Origin: a virus
Virus record (IMG/VR): IMGVR_UViG_3300008117_000049
Coordinates: 62,001-126,000 of that record
Direction: 5' to 3' (one strand)
Length of the DNA stretch: 64,000 nt
The notes under the pieces were generated by a model. That model was not told the origin of the DNA. It did not search any database and saw only the letters and a program-made list of their open reading frames with translations. Shown piece after piece: positions 10,400-55,100 of the stretch (positions within the stretch are counted from its first letter, which is position 1; every line of letters starts with the position of its first letter). A program made the translations under genes and the position numbers.

Positions 10400-10412
10400 A
10401 CCCTAAAAATCT

Positions 10413-10439
10413 GGGAATAAATCTTGACATTTTTTAGTT
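10413..10439 (+). promoter_or_regulatory. SigR/SigH-like promoter
   Basis: GGGAAT (10413-10418), 18 bases, GTT (10437-10439), 68 bases before the VWA gene. A TTGACA at 10425 lies inside the spacer. Confidence 0.55.
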
Positions 10440-10480
10440 TTATACAGTAAAGTAGTAGTAACAAGAAAAGGAGTTCAGAA

Positions 10481-28180: not shown

Positions 28181-28663
28181 ATGAATTTACAAACAATTCT
28201 ATTACTACCGATTGCTTACTTACTTGTTGTAAGCATCCCGTTGCTAATCACCGATATTCGCGAGAGCAGACTAAAGAACTCTATTGTTTTTCCAGGCTAC
28301 CTAGTGTGGTTAGTGTCTGCCATTGCTTATACCGCTCTATCTGGAGATTGGCTAAATGCTTTAGTGCTACCACTTGCTATTGGACTACCGCTATTAGTTG
28401 GGCTAACTATATTTAATATCAGGACCGATGCTATTGGTATGGGCGATGTCAAACTTATTGTTTTGATGGGTCTGACTTTATCTTGGAAGAGCCTATGGGT
28501 TTGGCTTACTATTCTAGTAATTGCACTATTCATTGGTCTAGTAGTTACTGCGGTGCTTGCTTTTAGAAAGAGATACCCAGACACTATCAGTTACACTATC
28601 CGTTTAGGAGTTATTACTTATCTTGTTTACATTACTCATTTGCTGGTGCTATTCACAAAGTAG
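28181..28663 (+). CDS. A24 prepilin-peptidase-like membrane protein
   Basis: Five or six hydrophobic segments. The two aspartates of type IV prepilin peptidases are both present in context: D25 in I-T-D-I-R-E-S-R-L-K-N and D89 in G-M-G-D-V-K-L, the family's GxGDxKL motif. At 160 aa it matches the short CpaA/TadV-like or archaeal-type enzymes without the N-terminal methylase part. It would cleave class III signal peptides of pilin-like proteins inside the membrane. A phage-borne copy is unusual; no prepilin gene was recognised in the window. Confidence 0.78.
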   Translation: MNLQTILLLPIAYLLVVSIPLLITDIRESRLKNSIVFPGYLVWLVSAIAYTALSGDWLNALVLPLAIGLPLLVGLTIFNIRTDAIGMGDVKLIVLMGLTLSWKSLWVWLTILVIALFIGLVVTAVLAFRKRYPDTISYTIRLGVITYLVYITHLLVLFTK

Positions 28664-32338: not shown

Positions 32339-32389
32339 CATCTCCATCCACTGGGCAAGTTTGCCTGGGTTGCCATTTTTTCTGTGCAT

Positions 32390-32404
32390 TACAATAGATT
32401 CATG
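32390..32404 (+). promoter_or_regulatory. -10 box and leaderless start of terminase
   Basis: TACAAT (32390-32395), six bases, then ATG 32402; no Shine-Dalgarno sequence. The arrangement is identical to that at 32057. Confidence 0.5.
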
Positions 32405-33793
32405 GCCAAATCTATAATGGAACAAATCGCTCTTCTGCCTGATGCAGAGAGAGCACTCGTCTTATCTGGCATGGATGCCGATACTCTTATGTGGGATTGG
32501 TCAGTCTGGGGCAGACCTGAACAGCACGCTCCCGTAGGTGATTGGGCAGTCTGGATGTATCTTGGTGGTCGTGGTGCTGGTAAGACCCGTGCCGCAGCCG
32601 AGTGGGTGAGAGAGCAAGCCAAATACACTAACACGGGTCAAAGGCGTTTTGCTTTGGTTGCGAGAACAGCAGCAGATGTGCGAGATGTAATCGTTGAGGG
32701 TGAGAGTGGAATTATGAATGTATCTCCACCTAGCGAAAGACCATTGTATGAACCATCAAAGCGAAGACTAACTTGGCCTAATGGAAATACTGCTACTTGC
32801 TTTACTGCCGATGAGCCTGACTCTTTGCGTGGTCCACAATTTACTCACGCTTGGGGAGATGAGATTGCTGCTTGGCGACAGACACCTGACGCAGCAGGTA
32901 TGACTGCTTTTGATAACTTGCGTGTAGGAACTCGTCTTGGTCGTAATCCACAGATTATGGTTACTACTACACCTAAGCGTGTTCCATTGCTCTACAAGTT
33001 GATAGAAGAAAGTAAGAACACTGGTCGTGTAGTTATCACTCGTGGTTCTACTCTTGATAACTCTGGAAACCTAAGCGTTGCTTATCTTGATGCTATTACG
33101 GGTGTCTATGCTGGAACTCGTCTTGCTCAACAGGAACTTTATGGTGAGATGTTGGATAGCGTTGAGGGTGCTTTGTGGAATGATGATTTGATTGAGGTAC
33201 ATAGACAGAACGCTCTACCACTGAACACACCACTGCGTTGTATTGGTGTTGACCCTAGCGTTGCTGAGAACCCTAGAGATGAATGCGGAATAGTTGTAGT
33301 CGCATCAACTGGTGAGAGAGATTTGTATAAGCGTCAGGCTTGGGTATTAGAAGATGCTAGCGTGTTAGGTTCGCCTGAAGTGTGGGCTAACCGAGTAGTT
33401 GCTATGGCTCGCAAGTGGGGCTGTCCAGTTATTGCTGAAGTCAATCAAGGTGGAGCATTAGTTCGTAATGCTATCAACGCCATTGACCCTAGTATCAAAG
33501 TATTAGAAGTCCATAGCAAATACGGAAAGCAACTTCGTGCTGAACCAGTCGTGCTTGGCTATGAGCAAGGGCGTGTCCATCACATTGGATACTTACCTGA
33601 CTTAGAGAGTCAGATGCTAAGTTGGGTTCCGGGTGAGGGTAGGTCGCCAGACAGAGTAGATGCTTTAGTTCACGCTCTTACCGCTCTTATGATAAAGCCA
33701 CCAGCAGGGTTTGTAGGTGGCAAACTAACTGCTAAGTCTATGGCTGGTCGTAAAATACCAGATGCTAGAAGTAGTTTCTTTAGAGTTAGATAA
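32402..33793 (+). CDS. terL: Terminase large subunit
   Basis: The motor that cuts phage DNA and drives it into the prohead. Walker A-like G-G-R-G-A-G-K-T at 55-62, Walker B W-G-D-E-I with D153/E154, then M-V-T-T-T-P coupling motif. The RNase H-like nuclease has D284 in G-V-D-P-S, an acidic E in A-E-V-N-Q, and D417/D420 in D-R-V-D-A. Length (463 aa) is normal. The start is the leaderless ATG. A stem-loop after the stop serves the convergent phosphatase gene. Confidence 0.95.
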   Translation: MAKSIMEQIALLPDAERALVLSGMDADTLMWDWSVWGRPEQHAPVGDWAVWMYLGGRGAGKTRAAAEWVREQAKYTNTGQRRFALVARTAADVRDVIVEGESGIMNVSPPSERPLYEPSKRRLTWPNGNTATCFTADEPDSLRGPQFTHAWGDEIAAWRQTPDAAGMTAFDNLRVGTRLGRNPQIMVTTTPKRVPLLYKLIEESKNTGRVVITRGSTLDNSGNLSVAYLDAITGVYAGTRLAQQELYGEMLDSVEGALWNDDLIEVHRQNALPLNTPLRCIGVDPSVAENPRDECGIVVVASTGERDLYKRQAWVLEDASVLGSPEVWANRVVAMARKWGCPVIAEVNQGGALVRNAINAIDPSIKVLEVHSKYGKQLRAEPVVLGYEQGRVHHIGYLPDLESQMLSWVPGEGRSPDRVDALVHALTALMIKPPAGFVGGKLTAKSMAGRKIPDARSSFFRVR

Positions 33794-36493: not shown

Positions 36494-38320
36494 TTGGGCG
36501 TTTTCAGGCGTGATAAATCACCCGCAACAAATACTCCACAGCGTGGTATTCGTGCTTCTAATCCAGTAGCGAATACTCTCCCTGCTAACTCTGTTTTTCT
36601 AAAACCAGTTCCTAACGCTGCCCCGTCTGCCCCTTACAACGCACCTAGAGCATTGACCGCTGCGGCTGCTCAACTAAAAATTGGCGACAAGTCCGAAGCC
36701 GAGCAATTCAAAAATCGTAGGGCAGCAGCGTCGTCTGCTTGGCAATCAGAAGCGTGGGAATACTACGACGCAATTGGTGAAATCAAATACGCTTTCAATC
36801 TTGTTGCTAGCGTTGTTTCTCGTATTCGTCTTTATCCAGCAGTAGTTTCTAATCCCGCTGAAAGCCCAAGTCCAATTAGAAATGTTGAAGCCTTTGACCA
36901 GCGTATTGTCGCTGCCGCTGAGCGTGCTCTAGCAAGACTTGATTCAGCGTATGGCGGTCAGGCTGGTCTGCTAAAAGACGCAGCACTAAATCTCCAAGTA
37001 ACTGGTGAGTGCTACCTAAGTCAAATTCCTCAACGCCCTTCAGATGGAACTCCAGAGTCTTGGGATATTCGTTCCGTTGATGAAATCACAGTTGATAGCA
37101 GAGCAAATGTTGTTATCAGTCCTAGACGAGAACTAAAGACCGCTGGTGGTGGAACTCAAAAGGGCGTTTATGTTTTGCCGAAAGGTGCGTTCATTGGTCG
37201 TATTTGGAAAGCACACCCACGCTTTTCCGAAGAAGCCGATTCATCAATGCGTGGAATTTTAGACTTGTGTGCTGAACTTCTACTTTTGAACCGCACATTC
37301 CGTGCAACGGCGCGTTCCCGTCTGAACGCTGGTGCGCTCTATCTGCCTGACGGTCTTTCGGTTGCTGCTAACCCAGACCCAGATTTCCCATACACAGATG
37401 CCGATGGTATCTACGACGGCCCTACTCCAGAGGAGTTGGAAGACGAATTTGAAGACCAACTTATGGATGCTATGACAACTCCTATCAAGGATGAAGATTC
37501 AGCGTCTGCCGTTGTTCCGTTGATTATTCGTGGACCTGCTGAACTTGGAGATAAAATCAAGCAGTTCAAGTTTGAGCGTTCATTTGACCCTGCTCTTGCT
37601 CAGCGTGCTGACCGTGTTCTTGAAAGAATTCTTCAGGGTCTAGATGTTCCAAAAGACATCGTTACTGGTCTAGCAAATGTGAAGTATTCAAACGCACTTC
37701 AAATTGACGAGGCTTTGTACAAGGCTCACATTGAGCCACTGATGTTGCTTATCGCCGACGCTCTTACAGTTGTCTATCTACGCCCATACCTACTTGCTAA
37801 CGGATTTACCGAGCCAGAAGTAGAACGCATTGTTGTTTGGTATGACCCATCACAGGTTGCTACTCGCAATGACCGTGCCGCAGATGCGGACAGCGGTTTT
37901 GAGAAGATGGCAGTTTCGTTTGAGACTTGGCGTAGAGCGCACGGTTTCTCCGAAGCAGAGGCACCAAGCCCAACTGAAGTTGCGTTGCGTTTGCTTGTTG
38001 AAAAGGGAATGATTACTCCAGAACTTACTGAAGCAATGCTTGGTGTTGTTGCTCCAGATGTTATGGAGAAAATCCGTGCTTCAGCACAGGCAGCACAGCC
38101 AACTCCAGCAGTTCCGGGTCTAGACCAAATGCTTCAGGGCGGTCCGCCACCTGAAGGTGGAGAAGCACCACCCGCTCCAGAAGAAGCACCACCTGGATTA
38201 GCAGAGCCAGGAGTAACCGAAGAAAGTGCTCCAGTTCCACCGACAGAAGAAGTCGCACCGCCACAGCCTATCGCTCCGTCAGACGCTACTCCGCCAGGCC
38301 TAGCCGAACCTACTCAGTAA
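36494..38320 (+). CDS. Portal protein
   Basis: TTG start with AAAGGAGAAC. Portal-type sequence: A-W-E-Y-Y-D-A-I-G-E-I-K-Y-A-F-N, long central helices with L-N-R-T-F-R-A-T-A-R-S-R-L, Q-F-K-F-E-R-S-F-D, L-D-V-P-K-D-I-V-T-G and V-W-Y-D-P-S-Q. It forms the dodecameric ring at one capsid vertex. The last 90 residues are Pro/Glu-rich and disordered. Order terminase, portal and then large head-associated proteins agrees with actinobacteriophage head modules. Confidence 0.9.
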   Translation: MGVFRRDKSPATNTPQRGIRASNPVANTLPANSVFLKPVPNAAPSAPYNAPRALTAAAAQLKIGDKSEAEQFKNRRAAASSAWQSEAWEYYDAIGEIKYAFNLVASVVSRIRLYPAVVSNPAESPSPIRNVEAFDQRIVAAAERALARLDSAYGGQAGLLKDAALNLQVTGECYLSQIPQRPSDGTPESWDIRSVDEITVDSRANVVISPRRELKTAGGGTQKGVYVLPKGAFIGRIWKAHPRFSEEADSSMRGILDLCAELLLLNRTFRATARSRLNAGALYLPDGLSVAANPDPDFPYTDADGIYDGPTPEELEDEFEDQLMDAMTTPIKDEDSASAVVPLIIRGPAELGDKIKQFKFERSFDPALAQRADRVLERILQGLDVPKDIVTGLANVKYSNALQIDEALYKAHIEPLMLLIADALTVVYLRPYLLANGFTEPEVERIVVWYDPSQVATRNDRAADADSGFEKMAVSFETWRRAHGFSEAEAPSPTEVALRLLVEKGMITPELTEAMLGVVAPDVMEKIRASAQAAQPTPAVPGLDQMLQGGPPPEGGEAPPAPEEAPPGLAEPGVTEESAPVPPTEEVAPPQPIAPSDATPPGLAEPTQ

Positions 38321-38329
38321 GAAAGAAAA

Positions 38330-38803
38330 ATGCATCAGAAATTAGCAGAACATCTAGCAGTATGTTTAGCCGATACGGTTACATACAAGTTCATTGCTCA
38401 CGGCTATCACTGGAATGTGAAAGGTCCTGAGTTCACTCAGTTTCACGACTTCTTCGCAACACTTTATGAAGACGCTGATTCAGCAATTGACCCGTTAGCC
38501 GAGAATATTCGCAAACTTGGGTTTGACGCTCCATTTACTTTAGAAGACTTTGCTTCTCTAACTTGCGTTAGCGTAAATCCAGTTTCAGGCGACCCGATTG
38601 AAATGAGTAGCAATCTATACGAAATAAATTGCCACCTTAAAGAGTGTTTAACAAAAGCGTTTGATATTGCCAACGCTTGTAATGAACAAGGAATTGCCAA
38701 CTTCCTAGCAGAGCGTATTGACCAACACGCTAAGTGGGTTTGGCAAATAGGCACCACTATTGGTGCTGACTCAACCGTCATAACCAGAATCGAGTTCAAG
38801 TAA
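38330..38803 (+). CDS. Dps/ferritin-like protein
   Basis: Clear Dps family member: Y-H-W-N-V-K-G-P-E-F with H27, H39 in Q-F-H-D-F, then D54 and E58 in I-D-P-L-A-E-N-I. All canonical ferroxidase positions, at the canonical spacing, are present. Dps proteins form hollow 12-mers that store iron and shield DNA. A copy between portal and giant genes suggests either a virion component or protection of phage DNA from oxidative damage. Length (157 aa) is normal. TAATG overlap with the giant gene. Confidence 0.88.
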   Translation: MHQKLAEHLAVCLADTVTYKFIAHGYHWNVKGPEFTQFHDFFATLYEDADSAIDPLAENIRKLGFDAPFTLEDFASLTCVSVNPVSGDPIEMSSNLYEINCHLKECLTKAFDIANACNEQGIANFLAERIDQHAKWVWQIGTTIGADSTVITRIEFK

Positions 38804-41800
38804 TGAGTGAATACGAAAACTTTGACCCTGTTGATGAAATAAATAAAATCATTGAAGGTGCCGACAGACCTGCTCTTCCATCTGTTTATGTGAAGAAAGA
38901 TAAAACAAATGTTGTCATCGAAGGTACTGCTTTAGTAGCGTCAGCAAACAGCAAAACTCTTCCTAGCCGTAGAGTTGGAAGATTTGAAATGCTTGAAGTT
39001 CTAGAGCGAAGTCTCAACAGAACAGTCACCAATTTCAACAACCCCTCTCAAAGAGCGTTTACCGCAATGAGAGAATTATCAGACTTTGTGAATATGGCAA
39101 CTACTGGCGCACAGCCAAAGATTGCTGGAGAACACAGAGACCTACTTCCAGTAGGACACCCCCTATCAACCAGACCAAACGACTTTTCTGAGGAAGAGTT
39201 GGCTCAAGCCCGTGCTGAGTGGATGTCGGCAGACCCTAGAATTGCCGAAGAGTTCCGCCCATTAGTCGCTACTGCTTTTGTTACACCAGAAGAGAGCGTA
39301 GAGCGTGAGTATCTAATAGCAAAGTTGGAAGCAACTAACGCTACCCAAGTACCAAGGGATATCATCCTCGGCTTGACCGCCGCTGGAAACCCTTACGCTG
39401 GGGGGAACTCTTTTTTAGCACGAAGCGCCAGGGCTAGGGCTCAGCGCCGCGACAGAAGAGGTCGCTTTGCTTGGATGGGCGGTGGAGCCAGAGTATGGCT
39501 CGGAAAATTATTTGACGCAGTATCTTCTTTGTTCAGATTTGCTGGATACGACGCAAAAACAGATTCGTTTGACCTAGAGGGCGTTCCAGGTAGCCCTTAC
39601 TTTGGAAAAGTTATTAGCGTTCCCGCTTCACAAGTAGAAGCGATAAAAGCAATTCTTCCAGACAGTTTAGGGTTGCCAGAGCCACGCTCAAAGAGCGTTG
39701 CTAAAAATTTAATTGTGGACCCAAGCACTTTACAACTAAAAGATGCTCCAACTGGTTGGGAAAAAGTTTCTAGCGAAAACGGCGTTGATGTTTTCCGTTC
39801 CGCTGATGGTTGGATAGCAACTCGCTATCCTAACCTTGCCTCAGCACCAAAAGAGAGTAGCATCACTCGTACTCGTGGTGCTAATTCTGATAAAAGCATA
39901 AATCCAGACCTACCCGTTTATCACATTGCCCAAGGTTCCGCTGACGGAACGGTAGTTGATAAGCCATTTGCCGTGGCTCAGGGGTGGGGTGACGCTCAGG
40001 CGTTGATTGCTCGCTATGATAAGAAACTTTCTCCTAGCAAAAAGAAAGCCGAATTAGATGAACCACAAGAGCAAGGATTTATAAAAGGCTGGAAAAAGCA
40101 AGAAAGAGGCTACATACCAGCGGATTATAATCCTTACGGATACTACGCTGGGGGCAGAGATGTCGCTATGGGAAACGATTCTTATACAGACCCTAGTGGC
40201 CGATTTATTGCTGTATCTATGGCTCCTAAAAAGCAAGAGCAAGCCAAAAATGTTAGAAAGCAAGTTCTTGAAAGTGGGAAGCCAATTGAAACTTTTGACG
40301 GTGCTAAAGACTGGGATGGCGATGTAAGCAATTTATGGAGACTTGAAAGAGTAAGAAGCGACGGTAAAAGAGAGATACTTGGCTACTACCAAGATACCGA
40401 AGACATTGAGCGTGATACTGAAATTCCAAAAGACCTAGAACAAGGACAAGATTTCTACGAAGAAATAATTGCCAACACATTGCAGTGGGGCGGAAACTCG
40501 GTTGATTTTGTTGATGGAAGTAATCCAGACCAAGGATATTTAGTTGCTCACGAGGCTGATGTTGTGCAACCAGATGGAAGCGTAAAAAAGCGTGAGCAGT
40601 TAGTTACTCCAGAAGACTTTATGGACCCAATCGAGGGGCCAAAAATTCTTCGTGCTTATGCTTTAAAAAACCAAGAAAAACTTATGGAAAAAGGTTTTTA
40701 TCTTGGAACTTGGACAGACATGGTTGAGGTGAAAGACGAAAATGGAAATGTAATTGACAAGAAAGAAATGGTCTTTCTAGATGTCAGTGAGTGGATAAAA
40801 GATTTTGATGATGCATTTGACGCTGGAGAAAAACGAGGCGAAATTGCTATTTTTGGTGCCTCAGAGGGCAAGAGTTATTACATTGAAGTTGAAAAGCGTA
40901 GAAGAGAAACAATACGAAATACTCCAGTTCTAGATAAAGAAGAAGATAAAAGAGTTAGGGAAGAATCCGACAGGATTACAGATGAAGAAAATAAGTGGTT
41001 TAGAGATAATTATGCAGTTTGGCAAAACTTTGAGCGTGATACTGGAATAGGATTTTTTAAAGACGACGGTTCTCCAAATCCAGAAGTAGCAAAAGTAAGT
41101 CCAGAAATTTATGAACACCTAAAACGCAGAGACGACGCTGAAAAAAATAGAAATTCTGTATTCCAAAATTACATTCGTTCAGTTTTTGAAATGGCTGACG
41201 GTATGGACCCGGGCGGGAAAAACAACGGACTTGCTGTTAATCAAGGTTTATTAGACATTAGAGATAGGTATGTCGGCGACGATGAAGCAACTCTAAAGAT
41301 GAACGCTGGTCTCCGAGAAGGTCAGGTTGCTAGTTCTAAAGTAAAAAGCGTGGATAGGCTTGTAAATAAATCTAAATTAAAACAAAACACCGTGCTGTAT
41401 AGGGGGGCTTGGCTAGACCCTGAGTTGGTAAGTCAAATAGAAATTCAGGACTCTTACTTTGACAGAGGTTTCCAGTCTTCTGGACTAGATGTAGACACCG
41501 CAACAAGTTATTTAGATTTTAGAGCCGAAAAAAGTCAAGGCAAAGAAAGAGTTGTTTTTAGAATTCTTGCTCCGCAGGGTATGAATGCTATACATGTTGG
41601 CGACGATGAAGTAATTATGCGTCGCAATACAAAAATGACTATAATTAGAAAAACTAAGTTAGATGACACAACATACATTGATGTGGATATCGAACCTCAA
41701 ACAAAGGAGCAAATAGATGTCAGACTCCAAGGACTCGTCAAAGGGCCACGACCTGAATCTAGTGAAAGTCCCGGAGAACTTCTCCCAGATGACGGAGGAG

Positions 41801-44800
41801 GAGCAGATGGCTTGGGCGAAGGAGGCCCATTCGAAGTTAATTACGCGCCTCTCCCCACCACAAGACCAGACTCAGAAAGAGTAACTGACCCACAACTAGC
41901 AATTTGGCTAAGACTTTCTAAAGATGTACTGGGAGTAAGTCTAAACGGCATAATTGACGAGGCTATTGCTATAAATCAAAACAATGACCCAGAAAAACAC
42001 TTGGCTAAAAGGCTAAAAGCAAATGTTGCTAAATCTCTAGCAGAAAAACTCAAGGATGTTGACGACAAAGAGTTTGTAAGAGTATTAGATGATTTGGGGG
42101 TGTTCTCTGGACTATCTAAACACATGGACTGGTCTGAGCCTAAAAAACTTCAAGAAGTAATTTTTTATAGTCTAGATGCAAGAAAAGAAGTTGGTGTAAA
42201 CCTTAGAGCAGAATTTGCTAATGTCTTGAGATGGGCTACGACAAATAATGATTTTTATAGAGAACAGAAGGAACTCGTTGACAAAATTAATTCTACTAAA
42301 GAGGTAACTCTTGAAGAAGCACGACTAATTCTTGATGCCTATAATGAAAATGGTCGATTAGGCGGATTTACTCTTTTCAAAAATCTTATTCTTCCAGACA
42401 GTGATAATAGAGAATTTTTAGATGCTGTTAGGTATACCGCCGTTTCAAGCCTAGTTAGTCGATGGGCATCCACATCCAACGGTTCGCATGTTTCGTCTCT
42501 TGCTATTCAAGAAGTGGCTAGAAGACAGTTTGGCATTAGAGGTTCAGCCGAATGGAATAACGGAATCGGTATGGAGATACAGGTTAAAGATGTTGCTGAC
42601 AAAAACAGAAACTTGATTGGAAGATTTTTACAAGCCCAGTATGACCTCACTCAAGAATATTTCAAGAAAAAGGGTATATCTAAAATAACTCTCTATCGTG
42701 GAGTCAAAAACTTCAAGGCTCACGATATGCCAAAGACCACTTCCTCAACAGAAAATGGCATTTCAGGAGCAGTAAGACTAAGACCTTTATCATCTTGGTC
42801 GACTTCAGAGGGGGTAGCAATTGGGTTTGCTAGGGGAGAAGACGGAAGAGTATTCCGTAAAGAATTTGATGTAAAAAACATATTTTCTATGCCAGGCTTT
42901 GGTAATGGTTGTTATGAAGAAAAAGAAATGGTAGTTCTAGGTGGAGTTGTAGATAGCGTTGATATAGGAACCTACAGTGTTCTAAACACTCGTGGAGAAG
43001 GTAGTCCAGTCAAATACCCATCTCCAGAGCCACAAGCCATTACTTACGAATCTCTTCCAAACTTACTTCCAGACTTGGGATTAGAAGTAAATTACGCTCC
43101 TTCGCGCCGTGACTCTAGACTACTAAACGACGCAGAAAGAAATGAAATTGCGCGACACCACCCAACAGAAGCAATTTGGGTATCAATTGCCGAAGACTCC
43201 ACTTTCCACAAAAGGGAGATGCCACTTACTCTAAAAAATTCATTGGAATTCCACGACAGAGAGGCAATTCGCACTGGTCAAATAGGAACTGGTCCTATGG
43301 GCGAGGGGACCGTAGAACTAGCAAGGGCTTTGAAAAAGGGTGTGGCACAAAACCTTGAAAATAAAATGTCTTCTGTTGAAGCATCGGAGTGGGCAGAAAC
43401 AGCAAATCTTTTCAAAGACTTGGGCATAGTCGTCAACTTTCCTAATGATGAAGAGAGCAGTCAATATGGAGTTGTAAGAGCACTTATTAGTTCTTGGGCT
43501 TTTACTTCAAACGGCGACGAGCCTTTATCTTTAGCAATTCAAGAATTAGCCAAAAAAGAATTTGGAATTGAAAAGGCGGCTGATTGGGAAATTAGCCCAG
43601 AGAAACAAGTAAAAGTAGATAAAATTTTAGAAACTAGCGAAAACTTAATTAGAAAGTTTCTAAGGGCTCAATACGACCTTACTCAAGAATATTTCAAGCG
43701 TAAGGGAATAAAAAAACTTACTTTGTTCCGTGGAGTAAAGAAATTTAGTAACCACGAAATTGTAGAGTCTACTTTTCCTAACGGTGGAAAATTTACCGCA
43801 ACTTTGGGCCTTAGACCGTTATCGGCTTGGACTACAAGCAGAAGAATTGGAACAATTTTTGCCAACCGCTACGAACAAAGTAGGTTGTTCCGCAAAGAGT
43901 TTGATGTAAAAGATATATTCTGTTTCCCTGGCACTGGTTTTGGTTGCTTAGATGAAAGAGAATTTGTTGTTCTTGGTGGAAACACTAAAGGCATAGATGT
44001 CTCTAGTCAAAGAGATATGAGCCCATTAGGAGGAATGAGTGATGCTTTTAACTTTGAAAACAGGGCAGCCAATTATCAAGTTGTATTTGATAGCGATGTT
44101 GAAAGTCCGCTAGACCAAATTGCTGAAAGTGGATTTAGACTTGGCGAATGGGTTAACTATGCTCCTGAAAGACTTATTCGGCCAGAAAGAGACGCAGTTG
44201 CTGACATAACCTCGTTTGACCCCACAGACGAGATACCTAATTCTCCAAAAAATGCTGGCGGAATGACACGAAACACTTGGTGGGCGTGGGAGAGAGGTCC
44301 TGACGGAAATCAATTCATTGACTACATGCGTCAACAGGCTTGTCGTTTAATTGGACTACCAGTTCCAGAAACTGAGTTTGATAAGGGCAAGGGAAGCCAC
44401 TTTATGCTCCAAAGAGGCTGGGGTGCTCCGGGCGAAAAAGCCATAAAGGGAATGGTAAATGCTATTGCAAATGGTCGCCCTCAACCGCCACTATATCGTG
44501 GGTTGGCAAACGGATATGGCGAAAACGCTTCTACTCCAGAATTAGAAAGACTAAGAAGCGTTAGAGAGGGCGATACGGTTGATATGCCACTTGCTTCTGC
44601 CACGCGCTCACCCGGAGTTGCCACTTGGTACGCAACTAATAGGGGCACAGATAGGGGTCCTATAATTCTAAAAATTAGAGAAGGTGCTAATGGAGTGTCT
44701 CTCTCTAAAACTAACTCATTCTACCCGCACGATTACGAAACTGTAGTAAACGGAAAGTTTAGAGTAGTCGGCAACCAAACCGTTCTTACTCCAGTTTGGT

Positions 44801-47800
44801 CAAGAGATTATGTAAATATTTTTGACACTGAAGACCGCCCAGCAGAGGGTATACCAATTCTTCGTGGGCAAGTACCAGAAGATTTGCTAAATGAAATACG
44901 AGAAGCATTGATAAAAAATCCAAAAGACGATTTATCACGCTTCAACACCGATACGTTGAAATTTACTAACGACAGAAATAGAAGCAAATACTCCATTCCA
45001 ATTTCAGTTTGGATGTTGAGCGAACCAAAAGAAATTCAAGTAATTGAGTTGGAACAAGAAAAAGTTTATAGCATTGACGAAAACAAGCCTGAATCTAAAA
45101 ATGACCAGCCAGAAACATACGAAAATGTGGAACCATTTTTTGCCGAAAAATTAGAGGCTAATGCTGAAAAAGCGCCACTTGACTCTCCAGCAGAAGGTTT
45201 TATAGTAAGTTATGCCCCACTAAATCTAACTGGTCCTCAAAAATTAGTAAGTTCAGATGTCCCAGAACCTAAAATAACTGGTCCTCAAAAATTAGTAAGT
45301 TCAGATGTCCCAGAACCTAAAAAATACGGAAAAGATTTAAAAAAGCGCGAACAATTATTTAAAAAATATGAAGAAGCAGAAAATAAGTTAGACAGAGCCA
45401 GAAAAGAGATTTTAGACAAAGAGCGCGCGGCGAGGAGGGCTAACGGAGGTGCCTACCGACCACTACCGTATAAGTACGATATGGATGAAAATGGCAGATT
45501 AGTGCCTAATCCTCGTCTTATAGACGAACTAGGAAGAAAGTATTTTAATTTAGTTCAAGACTTGGCTGATTCCATAAACGCTCTGAGAGATTTTGATAAG
45601 AAATTTATTGAAAGCAAGTTTGAATTATCTGTTGGCGGAGTTATACCAAATCCGCCGTCAAGGACAGAAATTACAAGTCCGGGAGATATTTGGCAAGGAC
45701 TAAAAAATGTCAGAAAAGAATCGTTATATGCCATAGGCGACTGGGGCGCAAGTGAGACATCAAGACAGGTACTAGCCAGCACAAGAGGTAGTTATGTCTA
45801 TAACAAGAGTATGAAACCTGAATTTGTTTCTAGAATTTCTCCACTAATATCTCAATCAACTTTAAAAGAAAATACTCAACTTCACAGAGGCGAGTGGCTA
45901 CCAGAAAATATAGTTGACGCTGCCGAAGTGGGAGACTCAATTTATTTTGACAATATACAGGAACTGAGTTTGTTATCTGATGTGCCTAACAAACAATTGC
46001 TTCGCAGGAACGGCGACCAATTAGATAAAACCTATTATTTCAACAAAGGCAAAAAACCAGTGGTTCTTAGATTGAACTGCCCTAAAGGTATGAATGCTTT
46101 ATATACAAAAAATCAAGCAGACGAAAGTGAAAACTTTAGCGATATTGATGCTGGAAGAGATAGAGAAGACGCTATGGTGCAAGCAGTTCTTTTGCGCCCA
46201 GATGTAAAAATGAAATTAGTAAGTAAAACCGAAAAAGACGGAGTTACTTACCTTGAGTTTGATGTAGAGCCAAAAACAAAAGAAGAAATTGAATCAAATA
46301 AAAGTGGCTTAATCAAAAAAGACGGTCAAGTAGTAGAACAAATAATGCCACAACCAGAGGACCTTGGCGCATTAGAAACTCCTGAAGGATTTATATTAGG
46401 CAACGACGCTCCGATAGAACCAGATAATAGATTAGTAGTAAATTACGCCCCTAAAAACAAAAATAAAGGCGCTGGTCTTGCTAAAGAAGTTGAAAGAAGA
46501 CAAAAATTAGCGGAAGCACAAAAAAAGATACAAGGAGAACTTAAAGAAAAGCAAGAAAAAGAAAAAGAAATTCTTAAAGAAAGGATGGAGGAGCAAAAAG
46601 AAGAGTTAGCACAAAAAATTCCAGAAATTGCTCAAATGCTACCGTCGTCTCCACAAGATTTACTTGACCCTAATCAGCCGTTAAATATTTTGGGCTCTAC
46701 AGACATTACTCAAGAAATTTTTAATGTGCCTGGCGGTGACGACCCAGAAAAACCAAACTCAATTCAAATTTTAGAGCCTAATCAAGTTTGGAAAGATTTA
46801 GTTTCAACAATGGAAGCATTGGGTTCTGCTGCTTCTGATGATATTGAAAATCAAGTAAATGAAAAATTTGCTGAAACAATTAAAGATTTAAATGCTCAAA
46901 AGAAGCAAGTAAAAGCGTCTAGAGATGAAGCAGAATTAGGATTAAGAACACTAGAAAGAGCAGCCCAGCAGTTAGAAAACTCAGCAATTCTAAATAATTT
47001 TGGGGCTAATAACAGTCCTGTGCGACAAAGTATTATAGATACGGCTTTAAGTTATATCAATGACAAATATTTTTTAAAAGACCCTAACGCCCCAGATTTG
47101 GTTTGGAATAGTGATTTTGGTGCTTTTGCTCAGTGGGCTGTAAAAAAGAGATATCCAAATATATCGAAAGACGAAGCCCTCACAAAAACATTGGCATTAT
47201 TAACAGCCGCCAACTCTCACTTAATTGAAATTGCAAAAATGCCAGACTCTGCTCAAAGAGACGCAGAAGTAAAAAAAGTTATTGCAAAAATGATGTTAGG
47301 AACTTACTTTACTCAAACATGGGAATCATTTTTTGATGCCGCGCATAATTTAAATGTTACTAATAACCCGAACTCTGCGGCTTGGGAAGCGGAATTGTCC
47401 GAAATTATTGGCAATAATCCAATACCTGATTATAACCAACTTGCTAGGAATTTGTTTAATAAATTAGAAATTTATGAAGATAATAAAAAGAATTACAAAA
47501 AAGCAATAACAGATTTTTCTAAAAAGGTGCATGATGAAATAATTAAACCAAAATTAGAAGAGTTAGGAATTGTTTTTGGCCATAGTGTCACTATAGAACC
47601 AAGAGAAATAAACTATGTTGGAAAAGGTTCCCTTGGTCATGATGCGAATCGTAACCCCGTTTTTGTTCCTAATCCTTCAATTCGGGCTACTGGTGATTTA
47701 ACAGATGCTAGAGGGTATGCTTCTATTTTGACTGAAGCAATACAAACCTTACCTTACCCGATTGCTTTGCTAGTAAAAAACTTTATAGCAAGTAATGATG

Positions 47801-48540
47801 TTATATTTTTTGCCACAGATAGAGGAAATTTTAGTTACCTGCCTAAAGATAGGAGTACCTATAGTTTATCGGGCAATCTTTCGCCGCAAGATGCGTTTAT
47901 GTCACTTGGTCTAGATGGGCCAGATGAAGATGATTCAAGTGGCAGACCGATACCGGGTAGTGGTAGGAAAAGGGCAGTGAGCGTTGCGGCACATGAACTG
48001 ACTCATATGATGATACAAGCATTATTTCCAGAACTTAAGCCAGCGGAGTGGGCTGTTTTGGCTCGTTTTATAACCCAAAGGGATGCTAACGGAAATCTAA
48101 TTCAAAATCTTGTAAACGGAAATCTTGGAGACACGGTTTTGAGCAGTGAAATAACTAATCTTACACCAGCAAGTTTGCTTGCATTATTAAGCAACGAAGA
48201 AGTGTCGGTTTTTGCTCCTGAAATTTCCACTCCTTACTCTACGCAACATCAAAAAGGTTCTAAAAAAGTTGGTGGAGTTCGCGGGCTAAATCCGTTTCTT
48301 CATGGAGAGTTTTTCTCAACTCTAACTCAAGCCATGTTTTCGGGGGACCCGACCATTATGTATCCAGGAAATCTTGTTAGTCCTGGAGATAAACTTAGAG
48401 TAGGTTTTAACGCAGACGGAACACCTAAATACTTTACTATACCAGATGGTCCGATTTTTAATGCTGGTGCCTTGCCAGTGGGTATAGTATTATCTTTATT
48501 AATGAATGAATTAGCAAAACAAAAGCAAGGAATACCATAA
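38803..48540 (+). CDS. Giant multi-ADP-ribosyltransferase protein, 3245 aa
   Basis: One unbroken frame. N-terminal basic R-R-D-R-R-G-R-F-A-W-M-G-G-G motif (about 215-228). Five ART-like domains follow. ART1: R867, SS892-893, E936. ART2: R1299, STS 1333-1335, E1373-K-E1375. ART3: R1643, TTS 1677-1679, E1718-R-E1720. ART4: R1899, S1932, E1979. ART5: R2362 and E2455, degenerate. [V/I]xYAP linkers at 1012, 1429, 1784, 2135 and 2546 separate them. A coiled coil at about 2550-2600 precedes a zincin-like domain with H-E-L-T-H at 3064-3068 and a possible third ligand E3169. ARTs move ADP-ribose from NAD+ onto targets. Position after portal and Dps suggests injection with the DNA. Confidence 0.85.
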   Translation: MSEYENFDPVDEINKIIEGADRPALPSVYVKKDKTNVVIEGTALVASANSKTLPSRRVGRFEMLEVLERSLNRTVTNFNNPSQRAFTAMRELSDFVNMATTGAQPKIAGEHRDLLPVGHPLSTRPNDFSEEELAQARAEWMSADPRIAEEFRPLVATAFVTPEESVEREYLIAKLEATNATQVPRDIILGLTAAGNPYAGGNSFLARSARARAQRRDRRGRFAWMGGGARVWLGKLFDAVSSLFRFAGYDAKTDSFDLEGVPGSPYFGKVISVPASQVEAIKAILPDSLGLPEPRSKSVAKNLIVDPSTLQLKDAPTGWEKVSSENGVDVFRSADGWIATRYPNLASAPKESSITRTRGANSDKSINPDLPVYHIAQGSADGTVVDKPFAVAQGWGDAQALIARYDKKLSPSKKKAELDEPQEQGFIKGWKKQERGYIPADYNPYGYYAGGRDVAMGNDSYTDPSGRFIAVSMAPKKQEQAKNVRKQVLESGKPIETFDGAKDWDGDVSNLWRLERVRSDGKREILGYYQDTEDIERDTEIPKDLEQGQDFYEEIIANTLQWGGNSVDFVDGSNPDQGYLVAHEADVVQPDGSVKKREQLVTPEDFMDPIEGPKILRAYALKNQEKLMEKGFYLGTWTDMVEVKDENGNVIDKKEMVFLDVSEWIKDFDDAFDAGEKRGEIAIFGASEGKSYYIEVEKRRRETIRNTPVLDKEEDKRVREESDRITDEENKWFRDNYAVWQNFERDTGIGFFKDDGSPNPEVAKVSPEIYEHLKRRDDAEKNRNSVFQNYIRSVFEMADGMDPGGKNNGLAVNQGLLDIRDRYVGDDEATLKMNAGLREGQVASSKVKSVDRLVNKSKLKQNTVLYRGAWLDPELVSQIEIQDSYFDRGFQSSGLDVDTATSYLDFRAEKSQGKERVVFRILAPQGMNAIHVGDDEVIMRRNTKMTIIRKTKLDDTTYIDVDIEPQTKEQIDVRLQGLVKGPRPESSESPGELLPDDGGGADGLGEGGPFEVNYAPLPTTRPDSERVTDPQLAIWLRLSKDVLGVSLNGIIDEAIAINQNNDPEKHLAKRLKANVAKSLAEKLKDVDDKEFVRVLDDLGVFSGLSKHMDWSEPKKLQEVIFYSLDARKEVGVNLRAEFANVLRWATTNNDFYREQKELVDKINSTKEVTLEEARLILDAYNENGRLGGFTLFKNLILPDSDNREFLDAVRYTAVSSLVSRWASTSNGSHVSSLAIQEVARRQFGIRGSAEWNNGIGMEIQVKDVADKNRNLIGRFLQAQYDLTQEYFKKKGISKITLYRGVKNFKAHDMPKTTSSTENGISGAVRLRPLSSWSTSEGVAIGFARGEDGRVFRKEFDVKNIFSMPGFGNGCYEEKEMVVLGGVVDSVDIGTYSVLNTRGEGSPVKYPSPEPQAITYESLPNLLPDLGLEVNYAPSRRDSRLLNDAERNEIARHHPTEAIWVSIAEDSTFHKREMPLTLKNSLEFHDREAIRTGQIGTGPMGEGTVELARALKKGVAQNLENKMSSVEASEWAETANLFKDLGIVVNFPNDEESSQYGVVRALISSWAFTSNGDEPLSLAIQELAKKEFGIEKAADWEISPEKQVKVDKILETSENLIRKFLRAQYDLTQEYFKRKGIKKLTLFRGVKKFSNHEIVESTFPNGGKFTATLGLRPLSAWTTSRRIGTIFANRYEQSRLFRKEFDVKDIFCFPGTGFGCLDEREFVVLGGNTKGIDVSSQRDMSPLGGMSDAFNFENRAANYQVVFDSDVESPLDQIAESGFRLGEWVNYAPERLIRPERDAVADITSFDPTDEIPNSPKNAGGMTRNTWWAWERGPDGNQFIDYMRQQACRLIGLPVPETEFDKGKGSHFMLQRGWGAPGEKAIKGMVNAIANGRPQPPLYRGLANGYGENASTPELERLRSVREGDTVDMPLASATRSPGVATWYATNRGTDRGPIILKIREGANGVSLSKTNSFYPHDYETVVNGKFRVVGNQTVLTPVWSRDYVNIFDTEDRPAEGIPILRGQVPEDLLNEIREALIKNPKDDLSRFNTDTLKFTNDRNRSKYSIPISVWMLSEPKEIQVIELEQEKVYSIDENKPESKNDQPETYENVEPFFAEKLEANAEKAPLDSPAEGFIVSYAPLNLTGPQKLVSSDVPEPKITGPQKLVSSDVPEPKKYGKDLKKREQLFKKYEEAENKLDRARKEILDKERAARRANGGAYRPLPYKYDMDENGRLVPNPRLIDELGRKYFNLVQDLADSINALRDFDKKFIESKFELSVGGVIPNPPSRTEITSPGDIWQGLKNVRKESLYAIGDWGASETSRQVLASTRGSYVYNKSMKPEFVSRISPLISQSTLKENTQLHRGEWLPENIVDAAEVGDSIYFDNIQELSLLSDVPNKQLLRRNGDQLDKTYYFNKGKKPVVLRLNCPKGMNALYTKNQADESENFSDIDAGRDREDAMVQAVLLRPDVKMKLVSKTEKDGVTYLEFDVEPKTKEEIESNKSGLIKKDGQVVEQIMPQPEDLGALETPEGFILGNDAPIEPDNRLVVNYAPKNKNKGAGLAKEVERRQKLAEAQKKIQGELKEKQEKEKEILKERMEEQKEELAQKIPEIAQMLPSSPQDLLDPNQPLNILGSTDITQEIFNVPGGDDPEKPNSIQILEPNQVWKDLVSTMEALGSAASDDIENQVNEKFAETIKDLNAQKKQVKASRDEAELGLRTLERAAQQLENSAILNNFGANNSPVRQSIIDTALSYINDKYFLKDPNAPDLVWNSDFGAFAQWAVKKRYPNISKDEALTKTLALLTAANSHLIEIAKMPDSAQRDAEVKKVIAKMMLGTYFTQTWESFFDAAHNLNVTNNPNSAAWEAELSEIIGNNPIPDYNQLARNLFNKLEIYEDNKKNYKKAITDFSKKVHDEIIKPKLEELGIVFGHSVTIEPREINYVGKGSLGHDANRNPVFVPNPSIRATGDLTDARGYASILTEAIQTLPYPIALLVKNFIASNDVIFFATDRGNFSYLPKDRSTYSLSGNLSPQDAFMSLGLDGPDEDDSSGRPIPGSGRKRAVSVAAHELTHMMIQALFPELKPAEWAVLARFITQRDANGNLIQNLVNGNLGDTVLSSEITNLTPASLLALLSNEEVSVFAPEISTPYSTQHQKGSKKVGGVRGLNPFLHGEFFSTLTQAMFSGDPTIMYPGNLVSPGDKLRVGFNADGTPKYFTIPDGPIFNAGALPVGIVLSLLMNELAKQKQGIP
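45229..45324 (+). repeat. Perfect 48-bp tandem duplication inside the giant gene
   Basis: Two adjacent copies encode T-G-P-Q-K-L-V-S-S-D-V-P-E-P-K plus one residue, just after the V-S-Y-A-P linker. Identity is complete except at the boundary, so the event is recent. Confidence 0.85.
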
Positions 48541-49167: not shown

Positions 49168-52100
49168 ATGACCTACTATAACTCTTTCGGTATAGAGTTT
49201 GAATGTGACGAAACCCAAGAAGGTTTAGTAGCGGCAGGTAATCGCTGGACATCTGGCGGAAACTCCACCCTTGCTCGTCGTGCTCGTGTAGCACTTCAAA
49301 GGCGTGACCGTTATGGTCGTTGGGCCGAAATGGGTGGCGGTATTTCGTTCCCTGGCCGTTTAGGAAACGGAACTATTGAAAAATTTGTTGGTCGTTATGT
49401 CGGTCCCGCTGAACGCCCAGACTATATGCGGGTCTATGTCACAGAGGCCAGAAGACCGGGTATCTACGAAGTCCCTTCCCGAGTTGCTACGGTTGCTAAG
49501 GCACTTCTAAGCAAAGAAGCACTTAAAGATGTTGGCGTAAATCTAGATGTTAACGGAAACCGCGTTGGCGAAATTCTTGACAGAGACATTGAGTTTATTG
49601 ACCAAATGTGGAAAGGCAACAAGCCTACCGATTTTGAACTTAGTATGGCTCGTGGCGAAGTATCAAAGCCAGAAAAAAGAGTTATTGAAAAGGCTCGTCT
49701 AAGAGCACCTAAGCACAAGTCCTACAACATTGTTGATGAAAAAGGCAACAGGATTGATAAAGACGAAGAGCCAGCAAAACCAGATGTAAAAAAGCCTAGC
49801 AAAAAGGCTAAGCCAGCCGAAAAGTTCCCAGTTCCAGACACAAGCCAGTGGGATGAAAAACGCCAAAGCAATGATGTTTGGTATGAAAAAGACGGTAAGC
49901 GTATTCCAGATGAAAGACTAACTGAAGCCGATAAAACTCCAGAAAATAAAAGAATTTATATTCGCGAAGGGGAAAAAGGCGAAAACGACAAAATTATTGA
50001 TGGAAATGGAAACTTAATTGAGTTTAAGCCTAGTCTTAAACCAGAATCTAGTCCAATTCCAGAAAAACTTCCAGAGCATGACCCAGAAGAGGGTTTTTGG
50101 AACAAAGCCAGAGTAAGACGAGAAGAAGTCCGTAAAAATTTAAAGACTCCTCAAGAAATTTACGAAGAATTATATAACGGTGGTTTTGCTGAAGCAGATT
50201 TAGACAAAGCAATAGCAGCCTGTGATTATGCGCTTAGTCAGCAGAAGTACTTAGGTAGAGACGAAAACCCACTATATGCGTCAAATCCAGATGACCCAAG
50301 ACTTAGACACATAGCAAACTTACTTGAGTCCCTACCAGAGTGGCAAGAATACAGAATTAAGCGTGCCATAAATCTTAGATTTATGAACGAGGAAAATATT
50401 GATGAACTAAAGGCTTGGGTAGATGGGAAAATAGAGCCCGGCTCTCCGTTATCACCAGAAGATATGGTTGAACTTCACCGTAAGTTTAGGAATCTTGCGG
50501 TTGACATAACCAACCTAAGAATTTCTGGAGAAGATGCTTTTAGCAACGACAACCTCGGTGCTGAGCGTATCAATATGCCACAACTTGATGAAAAAAACCT
50601 GCCTCTATTTTTACGAGACATGGCAAGAATTGGTGTTGGTCACCGATACACAAGAATGATGCCAGACCAATTACACCCTGTTCAAATGGAAATGGACATG
50701 GGCGATATTGCCAAGATTGCTGAGTCTTGGAAAGACATTGAGTTATTCAATAAATTTAACCCACACGAAAACCCAATTGTTATATCAAGAGATGGTTATG
50801 TTCTTGACGGACATCACCGCTGGGCTGCTGCTTGGCTAGCCCAAAAAAGAGGCGACAAACTTGCCCTTAAGGGTCTAAAAGTAGTTCAACTTGACATAGA
50901 CCACGAACAAGCATTAACGATTGCTAACGAGTGGAACGACTACGCTGGAATTCGCAGGATAACCGTTGGTGGTAAGGATGTTAGAGAGCCTAGACCACAA
51001 GCCCCAGCAGTTCCGCAAGCCACTTCTAAAATTACATCACCGTCTGCTACTCCAGATTTGCCGCGTGTTAGCCCTCAGCCAGATTTAGTAGTAAATTATG
51101 CTCCTTCCGACGACAATTTGTCCACCCCAAGCGGAGAAAACTTTAAGAGTTTTCTTGACAGGGAACTGGCAAATGTCGGCGACAAAATTATTCCAGACTT
51201 TGGTGACCGACTCACAGAAGATACTCCCAACCCAGAGGATAGGAATAGCCCGTTCCCTGGCTCTCGCACAGTTGTAAATAATCTTTTGAAGTATAGAGAC
51301 TCAATGATAAAAGCAATGAAAGAGAGTGCTTTAGACCAAGACCAAGAAAAATTTAGATATCAATTTGAAATTGCTAAAAGAGTCACAAAACTTTTAAATC
51401 AAATACACGAGAATTTTTCTAACAATAAGAATTATGCTGCCGATACTGAATTATCAATTAGTACTAGCAACCCAGAAGAAAAACTAAAAACAGTTAGAGT
51501 TCTTCCAAACACTGTTAGATATGGTACCGACAACAATGGTATTAGAAAAGTTCAGTACTTTGAAGCAATAATTATTGCTAAAAATGGAAAACCTTACATG
51601 GTTAAGTGGACACCAGACCACTCTCACGCCCACAGCATCGACAAAAACGGAATTGTAAACGACAGTAACGATGGTGGAGGTATTTCATTTAACGGTGGAC
51701 AAATGTATGACGAAATTGTTGATGGAAAACCAGTACCTAGAATTGCCAGTGTTGGTGGGGCATTTACTAACGACGGACACCACGCTTTAGGTTTAGCAAG
51801 TGCTCACATAAACCTAATTAGGTGGGTACAAAGCATGTTTGGCGGAAGGCTCAAGCATAGTTCAAACTTAAGTGCTAGAGGAAACCCATACTCAAAGATG
51901 GTTTCTAGAGACATGCGTTGGCACGACAGAAGTCAAGCAGACAAGGCAGTTCATATGAGTTGCCCAAACGCTACTATTTTTAAAGTCCTCAAAGATATGG
52001 GATTAATTAGCGGTGAGTATATTCCAGCAACCCCTGGAGCAAAACAAGATGATGACACTCCGGGCGGTTACGGGGCTCACAGCGGTGGGCGCGGTTGGCT

Positions 52101-55100
52101 AAGAAGGCTCACATTTACCAACAACTCTGGTTACTCAAGTAATGTATCTGTCTTAACAAGTTATAGCATTAACGATGAGGTCAGGGCTTATGACGGAGAG
52201 TTCTTAAGAAAAACTCCAGAAGAACAACAAGCGATACTTGACGCTATGCCTCCAATTTTTAGAGATTTCTTTGCTGGAGATAGGTCTAGAGATAGCATAG
52301 GCCGAACCGCTGATTTTGATGTTCAATATAAAATATTGGAAACTGCTTATGCTGACGGAATGAAGCAACAGGAAGCAGTAGATTTCCTAGACAGTTTAAT
52401 TACTGGGCTACCAGAATTAGATAGAGCATTTGGCAGAAATGCTGACCACAGAGAGTTGCTTAGACGCTTAAAGCAACTAAGAGATGGAATTAGTATTGGA
52501 TTTTGGAACCAAAGCGACAACAATTACAATAGGCCAAAATCTTTTGACCCAAACAGTATTAGAGCAATTGAATCTCCATTTGCTGGCTACTTTAAATTTA
52601 ATGATTGGGTTTTGCCAAGAGATGTAAATAGAGTTCTAAACGATTTACCATTTAGTGCTAGACCACACAGAGGAGGCTGGTCAAAACCAGATGGTTGGAC
52701 AGAAGAGCCACAAGCACTAAAAGACCTTTACGGTCCAGAAATTTTGCTTGCTTCCTTGCGCGACGCTCTTTTGAACAAAAAAGGTAAATCTGCCAAACTT
52801 CCAGACATTAATGGGGAAGAAAATACCGTTGACCCAACAGCAGTCTATAAAGCACTAGAGAATAACGGATATGACACAGAACTAATTCTTGCTGGCATTT
52901 ACGATGAACTAAACGGCAATTCGGTAAATACTGAAAAGTTGTTAGCAAAAAGACAAGAACTTGGAAATCTGCAAGGCATCATAGAAGAAATAACTAATGA
53001 AATAGCAGATGTAAAGGCTCCAATAGAATTTTCTAGAATTGGCGGAGAGTATGACTCAGAAAGTAAAGTTCTTCAGTCTGACCTAGTTAGGCGTGGAGAA
53101 ACTGGAGAAATTCCTACAGCACTCCAATTAAGACCACTTTCTTTGGATAACGAAGCATATGATTATCTAGGTCCAACTGGTGCAAGAACTCAAGTAATTC
53201 TTTCTCAACATCACACTCCAGAAATATCAATGTCTCGTTATTACATTGATGGAGTATCAGACAACCCAAAGGTTATTGCTAGAAACTTTAACCCAACTGG
53301 CCTAAGAAATGCTCTTATTGACTCAGTTACAAAGAATAATTACGCTGTAAAACTTAGGTACCCTAACGGACAGACCATAGATGTTCCAAACAATGCTATT
53401 CGAGATGCTTTACAGTACCAAGGGTATGACATAAATACCGTTTTAAGAGAAGAACCTAGTCTAAAACCTAAATTAAAAAGAATTAGTAGCGTTTCTGACA
53501 GGGAGAACGCAGACGGTAATGGCACCAGAATTAGCGAGTGGGCCATCTATAATTCAAGTGGCGAAGAAATTAGACTAAACGGTCCTGGCATTAGACAAAA
53601 GAGGAACGACACCACAGGGGAACACGAGTGGGATGTAGTTGATTTATCTAGTCCGCAAGATAACAGAACAATAGTTGCCAAATTAGCAAAAGTCAAGAAA
53701 AATGACGAAGGCAACTACGAAGTTTGGGTGGCAAATAGAGCCGACAACAAAACAGATGAATTTTCTGGAGAACCTAGCGGTGTTTATGAAACCTTACAAG
53801 AGGCTTTGTATGATGTTAAGAACCACATCTCAGACGATGCAAATATAGATGCATCTACCAACCTGCTAGGCCAAGGAAGAGCGCCTACAGTTAGTAACGG
53901 TTTTGCTATTGTTGGTGGAGCAAATGATGAGGCAGAAGTTACCGTTGGTGATTTAACATTACAAAGACCAGACGGTGCTGAAAGTTTTGTTGTTTTCTCT
54001 AACGGTGCTGGAACTGGCAGATTTAGAAGAATTTCTACTGCTCGTATTGAAAACAACACAATTGGCACGGTTTATACCGCAGAAACTTATTCCGTAGGAG
54101 AAGATGGCGGGAAAATTGAAGCCTTTGATTTGGTCAGAAAATCTTTCATAGGCTCTGACCCAGTTAGAAAACAAAGAATTTATGAGATTGCAAAAACTAA
54201 TCGTGGATTTGAACTTACAACTCACAAATATCATCCAGATGAGGGTGGCGTAACTAGGACCGAAACACTTGTATTTGATAATTACGAAGATGCTAAAGAC
54301 TATGCCAATAAAAAATTATTGGCTGGTCATATAGGATTACCTGGAGAGAAAGTATTTCCTAATCTTTCTGTCAGACAAGAAAGAGTTCCTGCTAGTGCGG
54401 ATTTGTCAAATCAAAACATATTCCAAGACAACTCTTCTATTCAAATAAATACTCCAGTAAAAATGACTGACGGAGTTAAAGGTCTTTTAAAAATCAATGT
54501 TAAGAAAGGTGCTCACCCTACTTGGAGAAACGGCGAGGACAATCAACAGTATGTGTTTGCTGAATTTAGTTTTGGCAATGAGCCAGACGAACCTCTTATC
54601 ACTGGTAAAATTACTAGAACTGGAGTAAGACAGTGGGTAACTGTTTCCTCAACAAATTCACCAAGTTTTAAAGAACACGCAATAAGTTCAATATTAAGAA
54701 ATGGTACTTTCTTTGCTAACAGTAAAGAAGAGGCTTTTGAAAGCCTAAAATACAGACTTGAAGAATCATTTGGCATAACTAATCAGCAAAGAGCCGACGG
54801 TCAGTCTGTACTACCTAGAATCAGACTTGTAAATAGGGCTGTTAAACTTGAGCCACCACCGCCACCGCCAGCCCCAGAAGATAAAAGCCTTTTTGCAGAT
54901 GGCGTTTTTGACGACTTCCTAAGAGTTAGAAATACCCCGCTTGATATTACTGGTGCAGAAGATAAAGGCGGTATGGGTCTAGGACAATCTGGTTCTAGAA
55001 AATATGAATTACCAGATGGTAGAAAGTTTAAAGTAAAAGATGAGGGCGCTAGAAAAGCAGCGTCTGAATCACTGAACCATGCTCTACATTTAGCACTTGG

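What the first reader, a model, noticed from the sequence alone, without database searches (positions are those of the whole stretch)
38803..48540. Single phage protein with five ADP-ribosyltransferase-like domains in series and a terminal metallopeptidase-like domain
In one 3245-codon frame I find five R...S/T-S...E-type ART blocks. Three (ART1-3) are well formed, ART4 retains one Glu and ART5 is degenerate. ART2 and ART3 are clear paralogues (both have F-L-x-A-Q-Y-D-L-T-Q-E-Y-F before the Arg). ART1 and ART5 share W-L and the end D-V-E-P. The C-terminus has HELTH. Single ART toxins fused to phage MuF-type head proteins are known; a five-domain array with its own peptidase-like domain next to portal and Dps is not a layout I know. 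It suggests a virion-delivered effector polyprotein.
Basis: partly seen in the sequence, partly recalled or inferred. Interest (0 to 1): 0.92.

Follow-up and report, generated by a model that had tools for sequence, protein, structure and literature searches.

The report
Phage polyprotein carrying five ADP-ribosyltransferase-like domains
A freshwater phage, probably of actinobacteria, encodes a giant head-cluster protein that strings together four intact-looking and one decayed ADP-ribosyltransferase domain, followed by a probable protease, with the same short peptide (VNYAP) at every domain boundary; relatives swap the domains but keep a boundary peptide of their own, which looks like a built-in cutting code for effectors that the phage probably injects.

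Summary
The 3245-aa frame is real and intact. It holds five ART-like domains. ART1 matches PF03496 and the Vis toxin, ART2 and ART3 match DRAT, and ART4's predicted fold matches VIP2, iota toxin and Certhrax. ART1-4 keep R, S/T-S and E. ART5, a relative of ART1, has lost the Glu here and in one relative. The C-terminus has an invariant HExxH, but its fold is unconfirmed. The gene lies between the portal gene and a second giant polyvalent protein, upstream of the prohead protease and capsid genes.

Relatives shuffle the ART cassettes, and homology breakpoints fall on this peptide. More distant relatives replace the ARTs with GNAT domains and use another junction peptide ([DE][DE]-L/F-G/P). Codons at the copies differ synonymously, so the peptide itself is selected.

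Best reading: a phage 'polyvalent protein', packaged in the head, cut at a lineage-specific junction peptide (probably by its own metallopeptidase) and injected. Polyvalent proteins with ART arrays are known (12 copies in one prophage protein). New here are an R-S-E-type array and the junction code. Packaging, cleavage and ADP-ribosylation are untested.

The parts
38803..48540 (+). Polyvalent ART polyprotein (P1), 3245 aa
   Evidence: Open frame, intact in several contigs
38803..39372 (+). N-terminal region, residues 1-190; candidate head-targeting propeptide
   Evidence: Conserved in at least 80 viral contigs. Encoded as a separate 199-aa ORF in L076/L078, where P1 is split at this point. Propeptide role is inference
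39382..39672 (+). Head module GGNSFLARSARARAQRRDRRGRFAWMGGG plus following stretch
   Evidence: Also at the N-terminus of the neighbouring giant protein; near-invariant in the family
41023..41787 (+). ART1 (R-S-E type)
   Evidence: PDB 4xzj Vis, E 1.6e-4; PF03496 over cut-off in the L013 orthologue
41836..41850 (+). Junction peptide 1, VNYAP (residue 1012)
42400..43086 (+). ART2 core (DRAT-like, STS and ExE)
   Evidence: PF07357 27 bits vs cut-off 25
43087..43101 (+). Junction peptide 2, VNYAP (residue 1429)
43405..44151 (+). ART3 core, paralogue of ART2
   Evidence: 43% identical to ART2; DRAT E 4.8e-4
44152..44166 (+). Junction peptide 3, VNYAP (residue 1784)
44167..45204 (+). ART4 (VIP2/iota-like fold, single Glu)
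   Evidence: AlphaFold2 and Foldseek; invariant R, STRS, E
45205..45219 (+). Junction peptide 4, VSYAP (residue 2135)
45313..46338 (+). ART5, pseudo-ART related to ART1, catalytic Glu lost
   Evidence: same loss in L059
46438..46452 (+). Junction peptide 5, VNYAP (residue 2546)
46453..47400 (+). Long helical region of the C-terminal module
   Evidence: Predicted secondary structure
47440..48537 (+). Probable zincin-like metallopeptidase domain, HELTH at 47992-48006
   Evidence: HExxH invariant; homologous to the HExxH domains of distant relatives (hhalign 97.6%, E 2.8e-12); fold not confirmed
49168..61494 (+). Second giant polyvalent protein (P2, 4108 aa) with the same head module, a ParB-like domain and one VNYAP
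   Evidence: phrog_2859 E 3.4e-22 and ParB families
51091..51105 (+). VNYAP in P2 (residue 642), after its ParB-like domain
36494..38320 (+). Portal protein
   Evidence: phrog_776 E 8.8e-105
38330..38803 (+). Dps/ferritin-like protein overlapping the P1 start
   Evidence: PF00210 E 1.6e-15
32384..33793 (+). Terminase large subunit
   Evidence: phrog_979 E 3.6e-24

Best explanation
This is a phage polyvalent effector polyprotein. It is made late with the head proteins and brought into the prohead by its N-terminal module, whose first ~190 residues are probably a removable targeting piece. It is then cut at the VN[Y/N]AP-type peptides between domains, most likely by its own C-terminal HExxH metallopeptidase, which may also cut the second giant protein in trans. 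The released ART domains (four probably active, one a pseudo-enzyme) enter the next host cell with the DNA and ADP-ribosylate several host targets early in infection. Shown here: the domains, their conserved active sites, the junction peptides and their conservation, the shuffling at junctions, and the head-gene context. Inferred: packaging, cleavage and its protease, injection, and targets.
For: ART assignments. Junction peptide: four exact VNYAP (0.045 matches expected for [VIL]N[YN][AGS]P by shuffling) plus one VSYAP in P1, one in P2, none in 100 other ORFs of this virus (27,032 aa). Relatives: same motif class at 4 of 4 junctions in L010 and L059 and at both in L013. Homology-block ends lie a median 19.5 residues from a motif, against 136 for random positions (smallest of 2000 simulations 88; the ends are not independent). 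Codons at the copies vary synonymously. The G003 phage uses [DE][DE]LG instead: 9 in P1 (0.32 expected), 5 in P2 (0.44 expected). L083 uses ED/EELP and L081 EDFP-type peptides. Clear junction motifs occur only in P1 proteins that carry the HExxH domain or are contig fragments of that group, and in none of 33 long P1 proteins that lack it. Head context: TerL, portal, Dps, P1, P2, then head maturation protease and capsid protein.
Against: No proteomics, so packaging and cleavage are not shown. The metallopeptidase fold was not confirmed (one search found only coiled-coil matches; Pfam support in distant members is weak). L014, L076, L078 and L084 have the HExxH domain without a recognised junction motif. 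The link between HExxH domain and motif rests on one related group of phages, not on independent origins. The acidic motif class is common by chance (1-2 expected per protein), so in L081 and L083 the enrichment is only 4-5 fold.
Confidence: 0.5

Rival explanations
1. The protein is packaged and injected intact, like N4 virion RNA polymerase. The junction peptides are docking or spacing motifs bound by another head protein, or points that unfold easily during ejection, not cleavage sites.
For: PMC5512222 notes that N4 virion RNAP is packaged unprocessed although it has an MPTase domain. P2 has one VNYAP and no HExxH of its own. L014 has cassettes without the motif.
Against: A motif at every junction, differing between lineages but shared by both giant proteins of one phage, is what a protease with its own specificity would need; a docking role would not need one copy per border.
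Confidence: 0.25
2. The VNYAP peptides are only scars of recombination that let phages swap ART cassettes.
For: Homology breakpoints fall on them, and cassette order differs between phages.
Against: The copies differ at synonymous positions in every codon (GTT/GTA, AAT/AAC, TAC/TAT, GCG/GCT/GCC, CCT/CCA), while the peptide is kept in six places in two genes. Distant phages have an unrelated peptide in the same role.
Confidence: 0.07
3. P1 acts during assembly or in the infected cell where it is made (head-internal or late cytoplasmic protein) and is not delivered to the next host.
For: Only gene position and the N-terminal module point to the head; no particle data exist. T4 ModA and ModB are ARTs that act inside the infected cell and are not injected (PMC5512222).
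Against: The gene sits among portal, head protease and capsid genes, and its head module is shared with P2. ART and GNAT cargo that differs between relatives fits host-directed effectors better than assembly parts.
Confidence: 0.15

Closest known systems
Phage polyvalent proteins (Iyer et al. 2017, PMC5512222)
   Same: Giant multidomain protein in the portal/terminase neighbourhood, ART domains in several copies, zincin-like HExxH domain thought to process the chain, predicted injection with the DNA.
   Different: The ARTs here are of R-S-E type, whereas that paper describes the H-Y-D (Tox-ART-HYD2) clade in polyvalent proteins and states that the Alt/VIP2 R-S-E ARTs were not found in genuine ones. 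Junction peptides are not described in the sections read.
Pseudomonas aeruginosa prophage protein with 12 ART copies (WP_023121221.1, cited in PMC5512222)
   Same: Array of ART domains in one phage protein.
   Different: Described there among Tox-ART-HYD2 ARTs. Not compared by sequence here.
T4 Alt
   Same: Head-packaged, injected R-S-E ART that modifies host RNA polymerase (model for function; from PMC5512222).
   Different: Alt is not described as an array with a peptidase module or junction peptides. No direct sequence comparison was made.
MuF-ART fusion proteins of phages (for example L063)
   Same: The same DRAT-like ART family as ART2/ART3 sits in a head-associated protein.
   Different: Single ART after a MuF domain; P1 has no MuF match and has five ARTs.
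Actinomycetia phage DSL-LC01 giant protein WJZ48510.1
   Same: Same N-terminal module (34% identity) in the head cluster between portal and capsid genes.
   Different: No HExxH domain, no VNYAP, different cargo.

Membership tests
Phage polyvalent proteins | Several domains of disparate activity in one polypeptide (2-15) | tested here: met
   ARTs plus HExxH domain in P1; relatives on the same N-terminal module carry GNAT, Nudix and RNase_T-type exonuclease domains
Phage polyvalent proteins | Encoded with a portal-terminase packaging system | tested here: met
   TerL and portal upstream; head protease and capsid downstream
Phage polyvalent proteins | Zincin-like MPTase domain (common, not obligatory) | tested here: inconclusive
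   HExxH and a downstream Glu invariant; homologous to HExxH domains of relatives that weakly match eCIS_core and Peptidase_M57; fold search unsuccessful
Phage polyvalent proteins | ART of the Tox-ART-HYD2 (H-Y-D) clade | tested here: not met
   ART1-4 have R, S/T-S, E. This clade is typical of, not required for, the class
Phage polyvalent proteins | Packaged in the virion and injected | not testable with these tools
   Only gene context and a shared head module
R-S-E ADP-ribosyltransferases | Arg on strand 1, S-T-S-like motif, catalytic Glu | tested here: met
   Met in ART1-4 with family or fold support; not met in ART5
DRAT (PF07357) | Score above the Pfam gathering cut-off | tested here: met
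   45.7 bits for the whole protein, 27.0 for ART2, 19.8 (below) for ART3. Target specificity of DRAT not implied
MuF-type toxin fusion | Phage_Mu_F domain | tested here: not met
   No PF04233 match in P1, while the same library finds it in L063

The most novel reading that the evidence does not exclude
These phages run a lineage-specific cutting code. One metallopeptidase inside P1 recognises a private short peptide (VN[Y/N]AP in one group, [DE][DE]L/F-G/P in others) and frees many effector domains from two giant precursors, P1 in cis and P2 in trans, giving a plug-in cassette system for injected ARTs and acetyltransferases.
Probability: 0.33. Interest if true: 0.78.

Novelty: new variant of a known kind. 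Interest (0 to 1): 0.62.

Why it matters
How polyvalent proteins turn into separate effectors is an open question: the founding paper proposes MPTase processing but, in the sections read, names no sites. Here the sites are predicted at residue level, in two genes, with a natural experiment (different peptides in different phages, same peptidase family). If right, domain borders and effectors can be read directly from sequence in uncultivated freshwater phages. It would also show R-S-E ART arrays as a delivered multi-target host-takeover kit.

Tried and rejected
Prohead protease as cutter of VNYAP: not favoured, because the capsid protein and the 1758-aa head protease protein lack the motif; they share [LIV][TV]AAG-like stretches with the N-termini instead, which is only an idea. 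Recombination seam: rejected as sole cause by synonymous codon variation. ART4 by sequence: no Pfam or PDB sequence match; needed the fold. Metallopeptidase by PDB profile and fold: no match. Prophage copies: none found in the genome-contig collection (84,980 species) at that sensitivity. Named phages: only DSL-LC01 by N-terminus and Bacillus phage SP-15 by an ART; no match for ART4 or the C-terminal module. Unbiased repeat-peptide search in other P1 proteins gave nothing convincing outside the HExxH-bearing group.

Full report
Observation. The frame 38803-48540 (+) encodes 3245 residues without a stop. The window is part of a 135,336-base IMG/VR virus record. ART1 resembles ADPrib_exo_Tox and the Vis ART. 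ART2 and ART3 are paralogues and match the DRAT family. ART4 has no sequence match, but its model, of moderate confidence (pLDDT 67, pTM 0.71), matches Certhrax, CDTa, VIP2, iota and C3 toxins with Foldseek probability near 1. ART5 is related to ART1 but lacks the catalytic Glu, and so does its counterpart in L059. The HELTH motif lies in a predicted helix of the C-terminal module.

Surroundings. Order in the genome: terminase large subunit (32384), portal (36494), Dps-like protein (38330), P1 (38803), a second giant protein P2 of 4108 aa (49168), then beyond the window a 1758-aa head maturation protease protein and the major capsid protein. P2 has ParB-like matches. It begins with the same head module (GGNS..LARRAR..QRRDR.GR.A.MGGG) that follows residue 190 of P1. 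The N-terminal region of P1 occurs in at least 80 viral contigs (154 stretches confirmed) and in none of the bacterial and archaeal species genomes searched. In L076 and L078 the first ~199 residues are a separate ORF and the next ORF starts at the head module, so this part is separable. The host is not known; the nearest named phage, DSL-LC01, is predicted to infect Actinomycetia (PMC10611076).

Junction peptide. VNYAP occurs four times and VSYAP once in P1, each at a border between modules, and VNYAP once in P2. Shuffled P1 gives 0.045 matches to the degenerate motif, and 100 other ORFs of this virus (27,032 residues) give none. In relatives the ART cassettes are reordered: L010 has ART1-ART4-ART2-ART3, L014 has ART1-ART4, L013 has ART1 and one ART2/3-like domain, and L059 has ART1-ART2-ART5-ART3. 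Their borders carry INYGP, LNNSP, VNNAP, INNAP, VNYGP and VNYSP; L014 has none. Homology-block ends cluster at the motif: median distance 19.5 residues, against 136 for random positions. The blocks are not independent, so this is descriptive rather than a strict test.

A different code in distant relatives. In G003 (L019/L079, L043) P1 keeps the N-terminal module and an HExxH domain, but its cargo is five GNAT domains and further domains not assigned here. Its junctions carry [DE][DE]LG: nine in P1 and five in P2, against 0.32 and 0.44 by shuffling. L083 has ED/EELP and L081 ED/DEFP-type peptides at the same places, and L081 also ends with an ART2/3-like domain. L076 carries Nudix and RNase_T domains. 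The HExxH domains of the two groups are homologous (hhalign 97.6%, E 2.8e-12). Among long P1 proteins, clear junction motifs occur only in the group with this domain; 33 without it have none, but several members with it (L014, L076, L078, L084) also have none, and the carriers are one related group.

Mechanism. Codons at the motif copies differ synonymously, so the peptide, not the DNA, is kept. A peptide that sits at each domain border, is shared by both giant proteins of one phage and differs between phages fits best with a protease site whose reader co-evolves with it. The HExxH domain is the natural candidate, as the polyvalent-protein paper proposed in general. Whether cleavage happens in the prohead or in the new host is open. 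The alternative of a docking or spacing motif is not excluded.

Known or new. Polyvalent proteins, including one with 12 ARTs, are known, so the layout is not unheard of. What differs is the R-S-E type of the ARTs, which that paper says was absent from genuine polyvalent proteins, and the junction peptides. Literature searches found no description of such peptides, but the library holds open-access papers only.

Noticed in passing
45227-45322: Perfect 48-nt tandem duplication (TGPQKLVSSDVPEPKI twice) just after junction peptide 4. Near-identical contigs (L005, L009) are 16 residues shorter, consistent with one copy.
   Followed up: partly
29481-30449: Histone-deacetylase-superfamily protein (PF00850, E 1.6e-46) in the phage; curious because relatives carry arrays of acetyltransferase domains.
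   Followed up: no
9307-12376: AAA_5 ATPase followed by a VWA_CoxE-like protein, a MoxR/VWA-like pair.
   Followed up: no
28181-28663: Type IV leader peptidase family (PF01478) match in a 160-aa ORF, near an NlpC/P60 protein at 26012-26593.
   Followed up: no
38330-38803: Dps/ferritin-like gene overlaps the P1 start codon by one base, so the two are probably translated together; Dps may also be packaged.
   Followed up: no
L051:7683-10343: An ART4 homologue in a different phage protein, where three copies of a KHxxGxHDQxxHGNWAxG-like stretch precede successive domains; perhaps another kind of repeated border motif.
   Followed up: no
L029:4220-11650 and P1/P2 N-termini: [LIV][TV]A[AS][GA]-like stretches (LTAAGN, LVAAGN, VITAAG, AITAGAD) recur in head proteins; possible prohead-protease site. 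No statistics done.
   Followed up: no
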